From Acetatifactor muris (GTDB taxonomy: Bacteria; Bacillota; Clostridia; Lachnospirales; Lachnospiraceae), in the NCBI GenBank assembly GCA_023664365.1, contig JAMPFR010000013.1, positions 1 through 64,000 of the forward strand: 64,000 nt of DNA, read 5' to 3'. Below the pieces are notes generated by a model. The model searched no databases. It was not told where the DNA came from and worked only from the letters and a program-made list of their open reading frames with translations. Below, in pieces: positions 28,441 through 61,741 of the stretch (its first letter is position 1; every line of letters starts with the position of its first letter). The translations under genes were made by a program, and so were the position numbers.

Positions 28441-28533
28441 TTATTCCCGCGGGCAAAATGTGTCTTTCAGACAAATAAGCCAAGTCAACTGCGTTGACTT
28501 TGTGCCAATGCTTGCATGGATATTTGACGAATG
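28441..28533 (+). repeat. Dispersed palindromic repeat, copy A
   Basis: Begins TTATTCCCGCGGGCAAAATG, then hairpin TGTCTTTCAGACA, then AAGTCAACTGCGTTGACTT, then a TTTGTGCCA tail. The same order of parts is present at 31777-31895 (reverse), 50971-51060 and 61660-61741 (reverse). It lies in the gap after the GNAT gene and contains no coding frame. Confidence 0.75.
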
Positions 28534-44594: not shown

Positions 44595-46157
44595 ATGCTT
44601 AGACAGGTGAAAACAAAAAACGGTGAACTGCAGGGGCTTGTAGGGAAGGATCCCAGAATCACGGTGTTCCGGGGAGTGCCTTATGCGAAGCCTCCTGTGG
44701 GAGAACTGCGGTGGAGGGCGCCCCAGCCTGCGGAAAGCTGGGAAGGCGTGCGCAAATGTTATGAATACGGAGATATGCCCATGATGCGGGTGCATCCCGG
44801 AACGGATGACAGCTTTTACAAGAGAGAGCTGCATCCTGTGTCCGCGGATTTCGGCATGAGTGAAGACTGTCTGTATCTGAACATTTTTACTCCTGCGGAG
44901 ACGGCGGAGGATAATCTGCCGGTATTCTGCTATATTCACGGCGGCGGCCTGCAGGACGGCTATAATTATGAGGTGGAGTTTGACGGAGAGAGGGTGGCCC
45001 GCCGGGGCGTTATCGTGGTGATGATTGGTTATCGCCTGGGTCTGTTCGGTTTTCTGGCCCACCCGGAAATTACAGCGGAAACGCCGGCGGATCAGGTGAT
45101 TTCCAATTTCGGAATGCAGGATCAGTCCCTGGCGCTTCACTGGGTGAAGGAGAATATAAGAGCATTTGGCGGCAATCCGGATCAAATTGTGATTTGCGGA
45201 CAGAGCGCCGGGGCGGGCAGTGTACAGACACAGCTTTGCAGTCCCTACAATAAAGGAATCATTTCGGGTGCAATCTGTCAGTCCTCGGTAACCTTTGCAT
45301 TTGGGGATGAGGAGTCCGTGTTCGGCAGGAGCATGACGCTGGAGGAAGCGGAAAGGCATGGCGCGGATTTCTTTGTCTCAGTGGGTATAAAAAGTCTGGA
45401 GGAGGCTCGCAGCCTGGATGCAGCGGAGCTGATGAGACGTCTGGACAGCGTGTCTCCCGAGGGTGAAATGTTCGGACTCTCTTTCGGAACCTGTGTGGAC
45501 GGAAGGTTCGTCACGGAACCGGTGGTATCCTCTTATTACAATGACAGGCTGCCGGATGTACCCATGATCGTGGGTGTCTGCCTGGGGGAAACGAGGGGAA
45601 TGTTCAGCGGCGCAGGGCTTACCCGGGCGCAGATAGAGAAGCGGGCAGAGGTCTACGGGGATAAGAAAGAGGAATTTTTAAGGCTGGCTGATGTAAAGAC
45701 CGACGAGGATGCAGCTGCGCTTGCCCTGGGAGACGCATTTAATATGTTTCTGGGGGGAAGCAGGGGCTTTTGTGAGCTTCGTTCCGGAATGGGAAAGAGA
45801 GTGTACTATTATATTTTCGATCATGATATTCCCGGCGATGACGCGGGTTCTTTCCACGGCTCCGACCTGTGGTTCATGTTCGACTCCCTGGCTAACAGCT
45901 GGCGGCCCTTTGAGGGAAAGCACTATGATCTGGCGCGGCAGGTATGCTCTTACTGGACAAATTTTGTGAAGACGGGGGATCCCAACGGTGTTGACTACAA
46001 CGGGAATCCTCTGCCGGAGTGGAAGCCCTATCGGCATGAGGAGAAAAATGTGATGCGGTTTCTTGGCAAGGCCACGCCTGACACTCTGGAGGAGTGCCCG
46101 GTGGCAGATTTCAGGCTTGCCTTTGGCAGGGAGAAGCTGACGGAACAAGGAAAATAA
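44595..46157 (+). CDS. Type B carboxylesterase
   Basis: 520 residues, no signal peptide. Alpha/beta-hydrolase of the carboxylesterase B group: FRGVPYAKPPVGELRW, oxyanion motif YIHGGGLQDGYN, nucleophile elbow ICGQSAGAGSVQ (Ser about 202) and a late SFHGSDLWFMF with the catalytic His (about 424). GAAAGGAAGGT precedes the ATG. As last gene of the carbohydrate locus it may strip ester groups (acetyl or feruloyl) from imported arabinoxylan fragments; that substrate is a guess from context. Confidence 0.92.
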   Translation: MLRQVKTKNGELQGLVGKDPRITVFRGVPYAKPPVGELRWRAPQPAESWEGVRKCYEYGDMPMMRVHPGTDDSFYKRELHPVSADFGMSEDCLYLNIFTPAETAEDNLPVFCYIHGGGLQDGYNYEVEFDGERVARRGVIVVMIGYRLGLFGFLAHPEITAETPADQVISNFGMQDQSLALHWVKENIRAFGGNPDQIVICGQSAGAGSVQTQLCSPYNKGIISGAICQSSVTFAFGDEESVFGRSMTLEEAERHGADFFVSVGIKSLEEARSLDAAELMRRLDSVSPEGEMFGLSFGTCVDGRFVTEPVVSSYYNDRLPDVPMIVGVCLGETRGMFSGAGLTRAQIEKRAEVYGDKKEEFLRLADVKTDEDAAALALGDAFNMFLGGSRGFCELRSGMGKRVYYYIFDHDIPGDDAGSFHGSDLWFMFDSLANSWRPFEGKHYDLARQVCSYWTNFVKTGDPNGVDYNGNPLPEWKPYRHEEKNVMRFLGKATPDTLEECPVADFRLAFGREKLTEQGK

Positions 46158-46532: not shown

Positions 46533-46705
46533 CTATTTCTGTTTTCTCTTGTATACCCTTGTCAGCCATTCACACAAGGAATTATTGGCAAGCACTCTTT
46601 TATCATGCAGGAACAACCGCTCATTCGCTTTGTATTCCCTGAGCCGCATATATAGGTTATATCCTTCTTGGTAGTAATCACCCGGAGGCAAATCTCCTGC
46701 TGTCT
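46533..46705 (-). pseudogene. IS66-type transposase C-terminal remnant
   Basis: In one minus-strand frame the segment reads GDYYQEGYNLYMRLREYKAN, LFLHDKRVLANNSLCEWLTR and YKRKQK-stop, which is the C-terminal block of IS66-family transposases (normally NNSLCERLARVFKRKQK, with more sequence following). Upstream in this frame are stops (before DLPPG), and the tail is cut short. A longer overlapping open frame (46562-46888) reads this part out of frame and is not a gene. It marks the left edge of the AT-rich segment. Confidence 0.6.
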
Positions 46706-46945
46706 ACGGTATGTCTTTCTACGGCTTGGGTAAGTCTCCAACCCTGATACTGATAGTATCGGCTCTTCTTTCATTTGTATATATTTAAAATCAAGGTGAC
46801 GCTTTAAAATTACCAGCATCTCATCAAAAGCCGAAGTACTTTTGATAGTAAAAATCTTCATATGATAAAAGTTCAATAGTATTAGCATTTGTGAATATAA
46901 ACGTGCAGCAAAGATGCATTTCTTCGATGCTAATTAAATTATACA

Positions 46946-46990
46946 CAGCCAGTATGCCATCCTAATCAAGGACATACTGGCTGCCATAAT
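46946..46990 (-). terminator. Terminator of the five-gene ABC operon
   Basis: CAGCCAGTATG and CATACTGGCTG form a perfect 11-base stem (46983-46973 with 46956-46946 on the minus strand), followed by TGTATAATTT, about 45 bases after the ATPase stop. Confidence 0.7.
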
Positions 46991-47026
46991 TTTTCTATCA
47001 GCTTTCCTGTAAATGCATTAACATAA

Positions 47027-47671
47027 TCATACATCCTGCAGACTCACGGGAATAATCTTTCCTGCACTAAACTCAAAAATATAATCCGACAATTCTTCTA
47101 TATCACCAGAAATATGACTTGTGAGTAAAATGAGTCTATCCGAAGCCTTCAATTCTAATATTAATTGCTTTATTTGTGCCACGCCTTGTTTATCTAATCC
47201 ATTAAATGGCTCATCTAAAATTAGAATCTTTTGTTTTTCCATAATTGCTTGAGCTATAGCAAGTCTCTGCCGCATACCTAAAGAAAAATTTTTAACCTTT
47301 TCTTTATTGTCAAGCTCCAATCCCACCATTTTCAAAGCAGCTTTTATGTCCTCGTCATTTATAATATTCCTTATTTGCGCCAAATATTTTAAATTTTCAT
47401 ATTGCGTATAGCTTTCTATAAATCCTGGCTTTTCAATGAGAACACCTAAATCTGGTAAAAAATCTATATCCTTACCAATAACTTTTTCATTCAATGCAAT
47501 TATGCCACTATCAGCTTTCAAAAAACCGCAAATAGTTTTAAAAAATACTGATTTACCTGAGCCATTTGGTCCTATAAATCCATATATATTTCCAAAATTT
47601 AATTCCAAATCAACATTATCCAAAACCACTCTTTTTTTGAATCTTTTTGACAATCCGCTTATTTTCAACAT
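47027..47671 (-). CDS. ABC transporter ATPase of a peptide-linked export operon
   Basis: 214 residues, one nucleotide-binding domain. Walker A GPNGSGKSVFFKT (about 36-48), signature FSLGMRQRLAIAQA (about 127-140), Walker B ILILDEPFNGLD and switch His in LLTSHIS. It is of the short type found with lantibiotic immunity and bacteriocin transporters. Last gene of the operon; its start overlaps the preceding membrane protein stop. Its sequence is AT-rich (many AAA, ATT, TTA codons) compared with the flanking chromosome. Confidence 0.9.
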   Translation of the reverse strand: MLKISGLSKRFKKRVVLDNVDLELNFGNIYGFIGPNGSGKSVFFKTICGFLKADSGIIALNEKVIGKDIDFLPDLGVLIEKPGFIESYTQYENLKYLAQIRNIINDEDIKAALKMVGLELDNKEKVKNFSLGMRQRLAIAQAIMEKQKILILDEPFNGLDKQGVAQIKQLILELKASDRLILLTSHISGDIEELSDYIFEFSAGKIIPVSLQDV

Positions 47672-48372
47672 ATGTTTACTCTCCTTTTTCTAATTAGCAC
47701 ACCATAAAAAATAACCAAGATTACATCCATGACTAATATCAATAGTACTATCGAGGCACTTCCAATCCGATTTCTGAGAACCAAGAATCTAACAGTTGAC
47801 ATTGCAGGTAAGATTGGAATTGGCAAAATTGTGTTTAATATATAAGCCGCAATTATATATGTAAAGCTGTTTTCTCTCGAATAACAATCATCCAAAATAA
47901 TATATAAAGTCATAATACCCAAAAAGCCAAAATCGTCCATTATTAAATAAAAAACACTTGATGCAATCTGCTCTAAATAAAATCCTGCAAAGCAATAATA
48001 TACAACATGCGAGATGGTAAGCAAAATTTCTCCCAATATAATAACTACTGCTGAATAAGCATATATAAATTTCTTATAGTCAGGTATCCTTGCAAGGATA
48101 TAAATCATGAGATCGCTAGATAATTTATCAACAATCTTCCCCACCGTAATAAAGACGATTGATACATTTAAAAGCTTTAATAAAACAGTGTTGAACCCCC
48201 AAAAATAAGCATCATTTCCACCCTGCCAGAGAATACTGCTACTTTTTTCATCAAGCTGAACACCAGTAAAATTTGCATATATAAAATCTACCAAGACAAA
48301 AAGCATAATTGAGATTAAAATATCTTTTTTAAACTCTTTAACAATTATTTTAAAGAGTGTCAACACTTTCAT
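47665..48372 (-). CDS. Integral membrane protein of the ABC operon (third)
   Basis: 235 residues with six predicted membrane segments (for example ILISIMLFVLVDFIYANF near 17-34, and VLLILVMDVILVIFYGVLI near the C-terminus) and a basic C-terminal tail (RKRRVNIC). No recognised domain. Overlaps its neighbours on both sides, so translation is coupled. Probably one of three channel-forming subunits of the exporter. Confidence 0.75.
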   Translation of the reverse strand: MKVLTLFKIIVKEFKKDILISIMLFVLVDFIYANFTGVQLDEKSSSILWQGGNDAYFWGFNTVLLKLLNVSIVFITVGKIVDKLSSDLMIYILARIPDYKKFIYAYSAVVIILGEILLTISHVVYYCFAGFYLEQIASSVFYLIMDDFGFLGIMTLYIILDDCYSRENSFTYIIAAYILNTILPIPILPAMSTVRFLVLRNRIGSASIVLLILVMDVILVIFYGVLIRKRRVNIC

Positions 48373-49120
48373 TCTCTACAAACTCCCATCTCTTAGATAA
48401 GCAACTAATGGTTATCCAAATATGCAGTACCAAGTACCCAACCAAGTGAACATTAAAAAAGAAAATGGACTCCCATAAATTAGCACCATTAATTGAAAAA
48501 ACATAGCTTTCCCCCGCAGAGAAATCTAAAATCGGTATATATTTTCCTTTTATTCTTAAAACCTCCATTGGAGAGGTAAATACAAAATAAAGAAGAAATG
48601 GCAATACACAAATACTTCCTCCCCTTTTTTGAAGATTTGTGAAAGCGTACCTAATGGTATAAATTATATACTGAATAAGCAATCCAAGCAATGTATAGCG
48701 TATCAATAAAAAGAAAAATGTTATAAATATTTCCTGACTGACAAGAGATACACCTTTTATCAACAGAAAAAATACTGGGGTGGATAATACTATGCAAGTG
48801 GATATACAAGTAGATATTGCCAGTGTTATATAATCTTCTAAAATCATTTTTTGCTTGCTTGATATCCTAGAAACGCAATTGTAATATGTTGAATAAATGC
48901 TGGCTTTATGCTGAATCACCATAATAGGAATACAAATAATCCACAAAAATAAATCTTTCTTCAGAAGACTAAAATAACCAGAAACAGTAGTAAATTTATT
49001 GATACATATGTAAACAATCAAAAAAAAGATTTGAAGAAACATCATCAGATATATTAATGGAGATGTATAAATCAGTCTTAACTTATTTTTTATAAAATGA
49101 AACTGTTTCATATACATCAA
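48350..49120 (-). CDS. Integral membrane protein of the ABC operon (second)
   Basis: 256 residues, six predicted membrane segments (LIYLMMFLQIFFLIVYICI near 18-36; ISTCISTCIVLSTPVFFLLI near 100-119; VHLVGYLVLHIWITISCL near the C-terminus). The three candidate starts MMYM are within four codons. Overlaps the third membrane gene by 23 bases. It is different enough from the other two that it is not a recent duplicate. Confidence 0.75.
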   Translation of the reverse strand: MMYMKQFHFIKNKLRLIYTSPLIYLMMFLQIFFLIVYICINKFTTVSGYFSLLKKDLFLWIICIPIMVIQHKASIYSTYYNCVSRISSKQKMILEDYITLAISTCISTCIVLSTPVFFLLIKGVSLVSQEIFITFFFLLIRYTLLGLLIQYIIYTIRYAFTNLQKRGGSICVLPFLLYFVFTSPMEVLRIKGKYIPILDFSAGESYVFSINGANLWESIFFFNVHLVGYLVLHIWITISCLSKRWEFVENESVDTL

Positions 49121-49923
49121 TTCCCTCTTTTTTGGTAGATTTTCTCTGATATCATCAATAATATCAAACCAACAATAATATATGTACCAATCAAAACTCC
49201 ATATCCATTAATGTTAAACGCCACTTGATACGGCCGCATAACCACATTAGGTTGCAATGCTGTTGGTAACACCATATCTAACACTCCTACTATTATGAAC
49301 GGTGTCACTATAACAGCAATCTTGTTTTTAAAAAAAGATGTCACCCCTATGGCAAAAACTAAAAATCCAAAATAGTATATAATATGTGAAACAAAAACTA
49401 AAACGAAATACAGCAAAGGATTATTTATAAAAAAATCTTCCTTAAAAGACACTATTCCCTGAATAAATTCAAGAGATGTATCATGTTGTGTTAACAAACC
49501 CGTAACAACAGCAAAAACCATCTCAGAAAAGGCTAATAATACTGTACCAGACAACGCAATAGCAAATGCTTTATGTATAACATACCTCAAATTTCCTTTT
49601 CTACTAACACAAAAATATCTAAAACGATTTGTTTTCTCTAATAAATATGTGTATAAATATGGCGCAACAAGTATCACGGGTGCCAATGCCTGAATCATAT
49701 AATATGAACCTTCCCATACCCTGTACATGTTGCCATAATATTTTTTGTAAAATATAACATCCTCAATGTTCTGAATATCTTGTGCAGAATCTATTTTCAA
49801 AGCAGTCCGCCAGCCGCTATAATATGCATTTATAATCATCAGACCAACAACCGCAACAATAAGAATAATATTTGATTTTTTTAGCAAAGCTCTTTTTAAT
49901 TCATTTTTCATAATAAATGTCAC
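49117..49923 (-). CDS. Integral membrane protein of the ABC operon (first)
   Basis: 268 residues with six predicted membrane segments (SNIILIVAVVGLMIINAYYS near 17-36 and a C-terminal GVLIGTYIIVGLILLMISE). The soluble loop after segment 1 (DSAQDIQNIEDVIFYKKYYG ... YRVWEGSYYM) and overall layout resemble ABC-2 type permeases. Four-base overlap (ATGA) with the second membrane gene. It follows the secreted-peptide gene by 59 bases. Confidence 0.75.
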   Translation of the reverse strand: MTFIMKNELKRALLKKSNIILIVAVVGLMIINAYYSGWRTALKIDSAQDIQNIEDVIFYKKYYGNMYRVWEGSYYMIQALAPVILVAPYLYTYLLEKTNRFRYFCVSRKGNLRYVIHKAFAIALSGTVLLAFSEMVFAVVTGLLTQHDTSLEFIQGIVSFKEDFFINNPLLYFVLVFVSHIIYYFGFLVFAIGVTSFFKNKIAVIVTPFIIVGVLDMVLPTALQPNVVMRPYQVAFNINGYGVLIGTYIIVGLILLMISEKIYQKRGN

Positions 49924-49982
49924 CTACATAATTTAAAAGAGTGTTGGGATTGGGAAATATTGTTGCTAAATACGGTATTGTT

Positions 49983-50396
49983 TTAATAAGAATCAATATT
50001 CCATGTTCCCTGCGTAGTTGCCGAAGAGTTCCAAGCGCCGCTATCTCTCTTCACAGCAAGTCTGTACTTCTTATTCTTAACAGTTGTATTGCGTTCGAAT
50101 TCACGAGTCGCAAAAGTACCTGTTGCGGAAAATGCAACTACTCTGGATTCTTCCTCGGAGTTTACAACATCATATGTAAATGTTGCATCACTCGGCTCAA
50201 CATATGTGCATTCCACAACAGGATTCTCATCTGCGGAATACTTATATGCCGCAGATGAATACTTCCACGGGCTGAATATGCCGGAGGTCAAATCGAAAGA
50301 AAACTTTGTATTATATGCATATGCTGTAGCTGCACATGCAAATACAAACGTGAACACCAGCGCCACTTTTGCGAATTTTTTGAAAACTTTTTTCAT
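49983..50396 (-). CDS. Secreted 137-residue protein, DUF2712-like
   Basis: Signal peptide (MKKVFKKFAKVALVFTFVFA, cleavage after AYA about residue 27) and a mature part of about 110 residues rich in Ser, Thr, Tyr and Asn (NTKFSFDLTSGIFSPWKYSS, DSGAWNSSATTQGTWNIDSY). No Cys in the mature part. Size, signal and pattern resemble DUF2712 secreted proteins, which sit next to bacteriocin-type ABC operons, but the family call is tentative. Start at 50396 is set by GAGAGGGAACC upstream. It is the first gene of the operon behind a near-perfect promoter. Could be a bacteriocin, a signal, or the substrate or sensor of the transporter. Confidence 0.7.
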   Translation of the reverse strand: MKKVFKKFAKVALVFTFVFACAATAYAYNTKFSFDLTSGIFSPWKYSSAAYKYSADENPVVECTYVEPSDATFTYDVVNSEEESRVVAFSATGTFATREFERNTTVKNKKYRLAVKRDSGAWNSSATTQGTWNIDSY

Positions 50397-50457
50397 TGTA
50401 GGTTCCCTCTCTTTCACAAACAAAACAACCAATCGCAACACTCATTTGTTAAAATTA

Positions 50458-50486
50458 ACTATACTATTTTTAACTGATAATGTCAA
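50458..50486 (-). promoter_or_regulatory. Strong promoter of the secreted-peptide operon
   Basis: Minus strand TTGACA (50486-50481) and TATAGT (50463-50458) with 17-base spacing, near consensus. Around the -10, TTAAAA...TTTTAA half-sites (about 50451-50475) form an imperfect AT-rich palindrome that might be an operator. The leader to the ATG is about 55 bases. Confidence 0.75.
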
Positions 50487-50589
50487 GCTGCATTTCGTTA
50501 CTCTTGTTTCATTCTCTCGTTTAATTCTATATAACTAATTTTATCTGCATCCTGTCAGCACATCCATGTACAGAGGAGATTTGTTGATG

Positions 50590-50890
50590 CTCGTGACCAT
50601 GGTTTATTCCCGATTCTGATATAGAAATGAATGAAGGATTCAACCGACAGAAGAACTGGCAGGGGGACATCACTCATGCCTGCAGTTGGGATGCAACGGC
50701 GATGAAGAACCATTACCTGATGACACAGATATCAGATATGATAAAGCAGCTGTATGAATGGTTTAGTTTGAAGTCAAGAGGGATAAAAAAAGAAGCAGAA
50801 AAATATATCTTCCGATCTGTTAGCAAGCATTTTACCTTTAAAATTAAAAATAAATATCCTGCACATTAAAGTTTTATAACGTGCCCCGTT
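50590..50890 (+). pseudogene. DDE transposase C-terminal remnant
   Basis: Reads NEGFNRQKNWQGDITHACSW, NHYLMTQISDMIKQLYEWF and, after a frame change near 50810, KNISSDLLAS. This is the C-terminal block of a transposase group frequent in Lachnospiraceae chromosomes. No N-terminal or catalytic part remains. It marks the right edge of the AT-rich ABC segment. Confidence 0.6.
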
Positions 50891-50921: not shown

Positions 50922-50969
50922 AATGTAACTGTTCGGAACCATACAAAATGTGTTCTGAACAGTTACATT
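50922..50969. repeat. 18-base inverted repeat after the transposase remnant
   Basis: AATGTAACTGTTCGGAAC (50922-50939) is matched by its reverse complement at 50952-50969 with one mismatch. It may be two insertion-sequence ends lying face to face after an excision or deletion, or a transcription-terminating hairpin. It abuts dispersed repeat copy C. Confidence 0.6.
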
Positions 50970-50970
50970 A

Positions 50971-51060
50971 TTTCCGCGGGCAAAATGTGTCTTTCAGACA
51001 CATAAGCCAAGTCAACGCAGTTGACTTTGTTAACGCAGTTGACTTTGTGCCAGTGTATAA
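50971..51060 (+). repeat. Dispersed palindromic repeat, copy C
   Basis: TTTCCGCGGGCAAAATGTG, hairpin TGTGTCTTTCAGACACA, AAGTCAACGCAGTTGACTT followed by a tandem second GTTAACGCAGTTGACTTTG, and TGCCAGTG. Same part order as copies A and D and the duplicated palindrome of copy B. It lies just upstream of the hflK-like gene. Confidence 0.75.
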
Positions 51061-61659: not shown

Positions 61660-61741
61660 GAAGTCAATAACCCCGCCGCAAAGACTGACACAAAGTCAAC
61701 TGTGTATGTGTCTGAAAGACACATTTTGTTCGCGGGAATAA
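61660..61741 (-). repeat. Dispersed palindromic repeat, copy D
   Basis: Read on the minus strand: TATTCCCGCGAACAAAATG, hairpin TGTGTCTTTCAGACACA, GTTGACTTTGTGTCAG and a distal part CTTTGCGGCGGGGTTATTGACTTC. The first arm of the GTCAAC palindrome is lost. It lies downstream of the regulator at 61941 and is inverted relative to partial copy E on the other side of that gene. Confidence 0.7.

What the first reader, a model, noticed from the sequence alone, without database searches (positions are those of the whole stretch)
46940..50490. AT-rich operon: secreted 137-residue protein, three membrane proteins and an ABC ATPase
Seen: one strong promoter (50458-50486), five tightly packed minus-strand genes with overlapping starts and stops, and one terminator (46946-46983). 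A signal-peptide protein comes first, then three distinct six-helix proteins, then a bacteriocin-type ATPase. Composition differs from the flanks and both ends carry transposase remnants (46533-46705, 50590-50890), so it was probably acquired. Bacteriocin loci of the lactococcin-972/DUF2712 style share the plan, but three unlike permeases and a Cys-free mature product are unusual. No peptidase or modification enzyme is present, so the product would leave via the signal peptide and the ABC part may give immunity or sensing. Best candidate for an undescribed system.
Basis: partly seen in the sequence, partly recalled or inferred. Interest (0 to 1): 0.8.

Follow-up and report, generated by a model that had tools for sequence, protein, structure and literature searches.

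The report
Mobile secreted-protein and ABC-exporter operon
A gut bacterium carries a transferable five-gene operon in which one secreted protein is paired with a self-protection-type membrane pump; it looks like a distant version of an uncharacterised operon type also seen in soil and gut bacteria, most likely a small protein antibiotic plus its immunity pump.

Summary
The operon is real: promoter 50486-50458, a 137-aa secreted protein, three membrane proteins with six hydrophobic segments each and an ABC ATPase, in the lowest-GC stretch of the window. All five genes are under purifying selection (dN/dS 0.08-0.18) against a copy in Acetatifactor muris. The copies in three named Lachnospiraceae genomes are at least 99.89% identical to each other where they can be compared, and two lie beside a conjugation coupling-protein gene, so it is mobile. 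Two details are wrong: the mature protein has one Cys (C63), and part of the left 'transposase remnant' is a broken winged-helix regulator gene.

The plan is not new. Loci of the uncharacterised family DUF2712 have the same order: secreted protein, permease, WxPxxD membrane protein, permease, ATPase. Seven of nine examined have three permeases. Permease 1 belongs to their permease-A family (hhalign E 8.3e-14 on independently found loci). The ATPase shares their Glu in the Q-loop; its best NCBIfam model is lantibiotic protection. The secreted protein misses the DUF2712 model but, end to end, resembles DUF2712-like proteins better than any control. Membrane proteins 2 and 3 match no family. Best reading: a divergent DUF2712-type operon, probably a Sec-secreted unmodified bacteriocin with LanFEG-like self-immunity; function inferred.

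The parts
50458..50486 (-). promoter, TTGACA-17-TATAGT
   Evidence: 11 of 12 consensus matches; -35, spacing and a -10 (TATATT) kept in L003 and L004, not the -35 of L002
49983..50396 (-). secreted protein, 137 aa (P0001); signal peptide by inspection, ending AYA; mature about 110 aa, pI 5.1, one Cys
   Evidence: 91% identical in L002; DUF2712-like by end-to-end comparison only
49117..49911 (-). permease 1, 264 aa (P0002), six hydrophobic segments, permease-A family of DUF2712-type operons
   Evidence: hhalign 98.1%, E 8.3e-14 to six permeases from loci found through DUF2712 alone; 99.4%, E 1.2e-21 to a wider set of 15, nine of them from loci found with this permease itself
48350..49117 (-). 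membrane protein 2, 255 aa (P0003), six hydrophobic segments, in the place of the WxPxxD protein; no family match
47665..48372 (-). membrane protein 3, 235 aa (P0004), six hydrophobic segments, in the place of the second DUF2705 permease; no family match
47027..47671 (-). ABC ATPase, 214 aa (P0005); Walker A, Walker B, signature FSLGMRQRL, Glu in the Q-loop position
   Evidence: ABC_tran 104.3 bits; best NCBIfam model TIGR03740 lantibiotic protection, 181.6 bits, below cut-off 309.75; motif table
46936..46992 (-). hairpin after the last gene, possible terminator of this copy
   Evidence: fold z -4.48; not listed by the terminator scan; not preserved in L002
46685..46852 (-). remnant of a winged-helix (Trans_reg_C) regulator gene, ending where the DNA-binding domain would begin
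   Evidence: tblastn of the 139-aa protein of L002 (PF00486, 63.4 bits, residues 56-133) matches only residues 5-60 here

Best explanation
A mobile, divergent DUF2712-type operon. The first gene makes a Sec-exported, unmodified extracellular protein of about 110 residues, most likely a protein bacteriocin. The last gene (an ATPase with a LanF-like E-loop) and the three membrane proteins form an ABC exporter of the LanFEG kind that removes this protein, or the target complex it forms, from the producer's own membrane and so gives immunity. Two membrane proteins would make the transport path; the third would be an accessory subunit. Shown by computation: gene order, purifying selection, mobility, homology of permease 1 and of the ATPase to the DUF2712-type transporters. 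Supported but not proved: DUF2712 kinship of the secreted protein. Inferred: killing activity, immunity, and the roles of the three membrane proteins.
For: Same five-gene order and similar sizes in an annotated Priestia plasmid: DUF2712 144 aa, DUF2705 253, WxPxxD 239, DUF2705 243, ATPase 212; a second Priestia plasmid has the same order, its first permease annotated only as hypothetical. All 9 DUF2712 loci examined have the ATPase, 7 of 9 three permeases. Permease 1 matches the permease-A family built only from loci found through DUF2712: hhalign E 8.3e-14, reversed and shuffled controls at most 0.7% probability. Glu instead of Gln in the Q-loop in 17 of 19 ATPases compared, window and L002 included (that this marks LanF proteins is recalled). 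The best model is lantibiotic protection for the window ATPase and for all four DUF2712-locus ATPases tested, always below its cut-off. End-to-end similarity of the secreted protein to ten DUF2712 or DUF2712-like proteins: mean z 2.52, A. muris orthologue 2.13, best of 244 other sequences 1.71. In 6 of the 9 loci (L054-L058, L062) a lipoprotein or anchored protein lies between the DUF2712 gene and the permeases (DUF5027 in L055), comparable to LanI beside LanFEG. A Sec-secreted, unmodified, lactococcin-972-like bacteriocin with an ABC gene and mobile elements in its cluster has been shown, by gene disruption, in a Lachnospiraceae species (mediterrocin, PMC12345188, abstract and passages).
Against: I found no report of killing or immunity for any DUF2712 protein in the held library. 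The secreted protein does not match the Pfam DUF2712 model; hhalign gives 4.1%; local HMM scores are reached by 23, 75 and 245 of 1000 shuffles for three DUF2712 sets, and the A. muris orthologue scores lower still; with its own profile, DUF2712-like proteins rank behind eight weak hits that the same profile had fetched (best E 0.09). Much of the end-to-end similarity comes from the C-terminal GxWxxD[SE] stretch. The protein is acidic (pI 5.1), unlike many bacteriocins (recalled). Membrane proteins 2 and 3 match none of the DUF2712-locus permeases by profile.
Confidence: 0.5

Rival explanations
1. A resistance module without a toxin: the secreted protein is an extracellular binder (decoy or sensor) that hands other bacteria's antimicrobial peptides to the ABC exporter.
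For: The best model of the ATPase is protection, not production. CprABC-type transporters are closely related to LanFEG and occur as stand-alone resistance systems (PMC5786555 passages). The secreted protein evolves no faster than the membrane proteins (91% against 82-89% identity).
Against: The resistance operons described in those passages carry a two-component system; none lies in this operon, and the regulator that follows it in L002 and L003 has no receiver domain by Pfam. The secreted gene comes first, right after the promoter, as a product gene would.
Confidence: 0.25
2. A signalling or cell-surface system: the secreted protein, or a fragment of it, is a cue or a surface component, and the ABC complex moves a lipid or peptide with it.
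For: LytTR response regulators, three of them with GHKL kinases, lie beside related transporters in L038, L041, L044 and L055: at least 4 of the 18 related loci opened; the other 14 were not scanned for regulators.
Against: I saw no such regulator near the window copy, L002 or L003 (ORF lists, by eye). Agr-type regulators also control bacteriocins (recalled), so they do not decide.
Confidence: 0.15
3. A chance neighbourhood of an unrelated secreted gene and a housekeeping exporter, or a decaying remnant.
For: The adjoining regulator gene is broken in the window copy. The same genome has a related two-membrane-protein ABC operon without a small secreted gene (contig 148).
Against: All five genes kept open with dN/dS 0.08-0.18 and the same order in L002 and L003; promoter kept in L003 and L004; a secreted gene plus such an exporter recurs in the nine DUF2712 loci.
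Confidence: 0.05

Closest known systems
DUF2712 / DUF2705 / WxPxxD / DUF2705 / ABC operon (Priestia plasmids NZ_CP072476.1, NZ_CP086209.1; Lachnospiraceae loci L053-L058; L062)
   Same: Secreted gene, permeases and an E-loop ATPase of 207-227 aa in one run; three membrane proteins in 7 of 9; C-terminal GxWxx[DE] in nearly all of the secreted proteins
   Different: Secreted protein and membrane proteins 2 and 3 fall outside the Pfam and NCBIfam models; no protein between product and permeases (6 of 9 have one) and no further protein of 189-211 aa right after the ATPase (8 of 9 have one)
LanFEG lantibiotic immunity transporters and CprABC-type resistance transporters
   Same: ATPase closest to TIGR03740; six-segment membrane subunits of similar size; separate genes (compare PMC5786555 passages)
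   Different: Three full-size membrane proteins instead of two; no lanthipeptide enzyme in the operon; 181.6 bits against a cut-off of 309.75
Lactococcin 972 family (lactococcin 972, streptococcin B, mediterrocin)
   Same: Sec-type secreted, unmodified small extracellular protein followed by ABC genes; mediterrocin is from Lachnospiraceae, with mobile elements in its cluster
   Different: No match to lactococcin 972 models at E up to 1; no DUF1430 match; ATPase only 93.4 bits to TIGR03608 (cut-off 254.85)

Membership tests
DUF2712 (PF10916) | secreted protein reaches the Pfam cut-off (22 bits) | tested here: not met
   no PF10916 hit for P0001, none in the own genome even at E 10
DUF2712 (PF10916) | overall similarity beyond chance to DUF2712 proteins | tested here: inconclusive
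   for: end-to-end mean z 2.52 (2.48-2.80 in reruns), reached by 0 of 244 other sequences and 0 of 92 secreted-control segments; against: local HMM reached by 23, 75 and 245 of 1000 shuffles, hhalign 4.1%; without the C-terminal motif z 1.2-1.5, reached by 1, 1 and 0 of 92
DUF2712 (PF10916) | same protein fold | not testable with these tools
DUF2712-type operon | secreted gene, then permease(s), then LanF-like ATPase in one run of genes | tested here: met
DUF2712-type operon | permease 1 homologous to the permease-A family | tested here: met
   hhalign 98.1%, E 8.3e-14 to six independently found members; reversed and two shuffled controls 0.1-0.7%
WxPxxD family (NF035952) for membrane protein 2; DUF2705 (PF10920) for membrane protein 3 | model match | tested here: not met
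   no hit at E up to 1; no profile match to the B and C sets
LanF, lantibiotic protection ATPase (TIGR03740) | curated cut-off 309.75 bits | tested here: not met
   181.6 bits, the best of 192 NCBIfam models hit
LanF, lantibiotic protection ATPase (TIGR03740) | Glu in place of the Q-loop Gln (recalled as a LanF mark) | tested here: met
   a literature search for it found nothing in the library
LanFEG lantibiotic cluster | lanthipeptide precursor and modification enzymes nearby | tested here: not met
   none among the five proteins; of the adjoining ORFs only the carboxylesterase at 44595 was scanned, the rest were judged by eye
Lactococcin 972 bacteriocins | model match of the secreted protein | tested here: not met
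   no lactococcin 972 model at E up to 1 in Pfam or NCBIfam
Lactococcin 972 bacteriocins | DUF1430 protein and TIGR03608 ATPase | tested here: not met
   no DUF1430 hit; TIGR03608 93.4 bits, cut-off 254.85

The most novel reading that the evidence does not exclude
The secreted protein is the founder of a third DUF2712-like group of Sec-secreted, unmodified, acidic protein bacteriocins spread between gut Lachnospiraceae on conjugative elements, with an immunity exporter that needs three full-size membrane subunits around one E-loop ATPase, a subunit plan unlike LanFEG (two) or BceAB (one).
Probability: 0.35. Interest if true: 0.65.

Novelty: new variant of a known kind. Interest (0 to 1): 0.42.

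Why it matters
DUF2712-type operons occur in Bacilli and Lachnospiraceae, yet I found no paper on them in the library searched. If they are protein bacteriocins with a three-membrane-subunit immunity exporter, they are an overlooked class of competition factors in the gut, easy to test because the product needs no modification enzyme. The window copy and its A. muris copy give a small, self-contained, mobile test case.

Tried and rejected
Direct searches for the secreted protein: 0 of 60 relatives, 36 of them of the same genus; 3 loci in genome contigs; in 397 family genomes only the own genome was convincing, the 29 others matching weakly at E 0.002-0.05; none in viral contigs, plasmids or phages. 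Permease 1: 11 of 397 family genomes including its own, the other ten at E 7e-9 to 1e-3; none in plasmids. Membrane protein 3: 1 of 289 other family genomes, E 0.004, in a frame with stops; membrane protein 2: 7 of 289 others, E 2e-4 to 0.009, short stretches, five of seven with stops; none convincing. ATPase in viral contigs: none. PDB by sequence: nothing useful for the secreted protein, permease 1 or the DUF2712-like alignment; only generic ABC proteins for the ATPase. PHROGs: nothing convincing. PADLOC: 20 hits for the ATPase alone, which I take as generic ATPase similarity, so anti-phage defence was set aside. Acquisition by flanking transposases not supported. Rows dropped: L051 and L052 (DUF2712 hits inside frames of 732 and 762 aa, below cut-off) from the count of loci; L056 (91-aa frame) from the ten DUF2712 proteins of the end-to-end test, while L036, L041 and L058, which do not reach the Pfam cut-off, are among the ten; the truncated ATPase of L043 from the motif table; 11 of 256 control sequences whose ends equal a test protein. 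The control set includes frames that are not genes. A further DUF2712 hit, in a Listeria record without annotation, has ORF sizes that fit the three-permease plan but is not in the 9.

Full report
What is there. The minus strand of 47027-50396 carries five genes: a secreted 137-aa protein, three membrane proteins of 264, 255 and 235 aa with six hydrophobic segments each, and a 214-aa ABC ATPase. Permease 1 and membrane protein 2 overlap at stop and start, membrane proteins 2 and 3 overlap by 23 nt, and membrane protein 3 and the ATPase by 7 nt; the secreted gene is followed by a 71-nt gap. A promoter with a perfect -35, a 17-nt spacer and 5 of 6 at -10 lies at 50486-50458. Its elements are kept in L003 and L004; in L002 the upstream sequence differs and the -35 is missing. 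The hairpin after the last gene is strong in the window (z -4.48) but is not preserved in L002 (z 0.42) and was not listed by the terminator scan.

The mature secreted protein has one cysteine, C63, kept in the A. muris copy. The left 'transposase remnant' is in part a remnant of a 139-aa winged-helix regulator gene that follows the operon in L002 and L003 (PF00486, 63.4 bits, no receiver domain found); in the window only residues 5-60 are matched. No family was found for the other fragments named.

Acquired and mobile. The operon is the lowest-GC stretch of its length in the window and its GC3 is 0.25-0.36. DNA similarity runs from 46686 to 50499 against L003 and from 46686 to 50466 against L002, with one break, and stops on both sides. 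A collection scan found the secreted gene in three named genomes: Acetatifactor muris DSM 23669, an uncultured Acetatifactor and Lachnospiraceae bacterium IMSAGC_003. L002 and L003 are 99.985% identical over 6.5 kb; L002 and L004 100% over 0.5 kb; L003 and L004 99.95% over 4.0 kb and 99.89% over 0.9 kb. L003 has a conjugation coupling protein (T4SS-DNA_transf, 155 bits) upstream of the operon, and L004 holds a 604-aa ORF in the same block. L004 also has a DDE transposase gene between that block and the secreted gene. The L004 contig ends just after the secreted gene, so the full operon is seen only in the window, L002 and L003. The secreted gene was absent from all 60 relatives sampled.

Functional constraint. 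Between the window and L002, dN/dS by two methods is 0.17-0.18, 0.09-0.11, 0.16-0.17, 0.14-0.16 and 0.08-0.10 for the five genes in order.

Relatives by plan. Pfam DUF2712 (PF10916) was found in 8 of 200 family genomes, 5 over the cut-off, and in 1 of 348 genomes drawn from the phylum. I opened six of the eight family loci (L053-L058), the phylum locus (L062), and two annotated Priestia plasmids (L063, L064). All nine have the ATPase in the run of genes; seven have three permeases (L053, L054, L056, L058, L062, L063, L064) and two have two (L055, L057). In L054 and L056 the permeases lie on both sides of the ATPase. The first Priestia annotation reads DUF2712, DUF2705, WxPxxD, DUF2705, ATPase, which is the order and about the size of the window genes. 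So three permeases are the rule in this small set, not an oddity.

Homology, gene by gene. ATPase: its profile finds an ATPase in all fifteen related loci then opened, L036-L044 and L053-L058. Glu replaces the Q-loop Gln in 17 of 19 ATPases compared, with Asp in L037 and Asn in L044. Its best NCBIfam model is TIGR03740, below cut-off, as it is for the four DUF2712-locus ATPases tested. Permease 1: E 8.3e-14 by hhalign against permease A of six loci that were found through DUF2712 and not through the permease; an HMM of those six finds it at 2.2e-12 among 277 sequences. Taken alone, its own two-sequence profile finds permease A in three of the six Lachnospiraceae DUF2712 loci at E below 0.01 (L054, L055, L056) and misses it in L053, L057 and L058 (E 0.4-0.7). 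Membrane proteins 2 and 3: no match by Pfam, NCBIfam or hhalign and nothing convincing in 290 genomes each; in end-to-end comparison membrane protein 3 is weakly permease-like and membrane protein 2 hardly so. Secreted protein: no Pfam match, no hhalign match, and local HMM scores within the range of shuffles. Compared end to end with ten DUF2712 or DUF2712-like proteins its mean z is 2.52. Two of the three Bacillus-type proteins score 1.4 and 2.0 on average against the seven Clostridia-type ones, and the third lower still; the best of 244 other sequences scores 1.71. With 92 secreted-control segments none reaches it under three gap settings. After removing the C-terminal GxWxxD[SE] stretch, 1, 1 and 0 of 92 do. 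I take this as moderate support for distant kinship, resting in good part on that C-terminal motif.

How it may work. The gene order (secreted product first, exporter after), the absence of any processing enzyme and the LanF-type ATPase point to a Sec-exported protein and an exporter that protects the producer. In six of the nine DUF2712 loci a lipoprotein or anchored protein lies between product and permeases (DUF5027 in L055); in lantibiotic clusters a lipoprotein (LanI) and LanFEG share the immunity task (PMC5786555, passages). For lactococcin 972-like loci the genes beside the bacteriocin are predicted to give immunity or transport, without experimental proof according to one paper (PMC11796350, passages; PMC4055356, passages). 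Mediterrocin shows that such a product can be real in Lachnospiraceae: 89 residues, Sec signal, unmodified, core very highly conserved, with an ABC gene and mobile elements (PMC12345188, abstract and passages). A conserved secreted sequence is therefore no argument against a bacteriocin. The transporter with three membrane proteins in those passages, NsrFE1E2G, has one membrane half split in two (10 and 20 kDa); here all three are full size.

What is not known. No activity is shown. No paper in the held library names DUF2712; one names WxPxxD, none DUF2705 (search listing only).

Verdict. It is a new variant of a known but uncharacterised kind. The bacteriocin-plus-immunity reading is the most likely, at about 0.5.

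Noticed in passing
window 50968-51000 (+), also 28441-28473 (+) and 61709-61741 (-): A dispersed intergenic repeat of about 33 bp with a small hairpin (tgtgtctttcagacaca); 14 further matches in the own genome at E up to 0.01, besides the query place and a self-inverted one. Next to it lies an 18-nt inverted repeat, arms 50922-50939 and 50952-50969.
   Followed up: partly
L084 4856-7883 (own genome, contig 148): The same genome has a relative of the exporter: two membrane proteins, a 214-aa ATPase with, by eye, Glu in the Q-loop, and an anchored 243-aa protein, but no small secreted gene.
   Followed up: partly
L038, L041, L044, L055: LytTR response regulators, three of them with GHKL kinases, lie beside related exporters, hinting at quorum-type control in those genomes.
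   Followed up: partly
L002 3901-4320, L003 9622-10041: A winged-helix (Trans_reg_C) protein without a detected receiver domain follows the operon; the window copy is broken.
   Followed up: partly
L002 1-126: In A. muris the sequence upstream of the operon departs from the other copies just before the -10 element, near the contig end, so its promoter may differ.
   Followed up: no
L036 5341-6704: A secreted protein ending in GVWSPDS and a short tail stands directly before a permease-A gene although it does not match the DUF2712 model; such outliers suggest that the family is wider than its Pfam model.
   Followed up: partly
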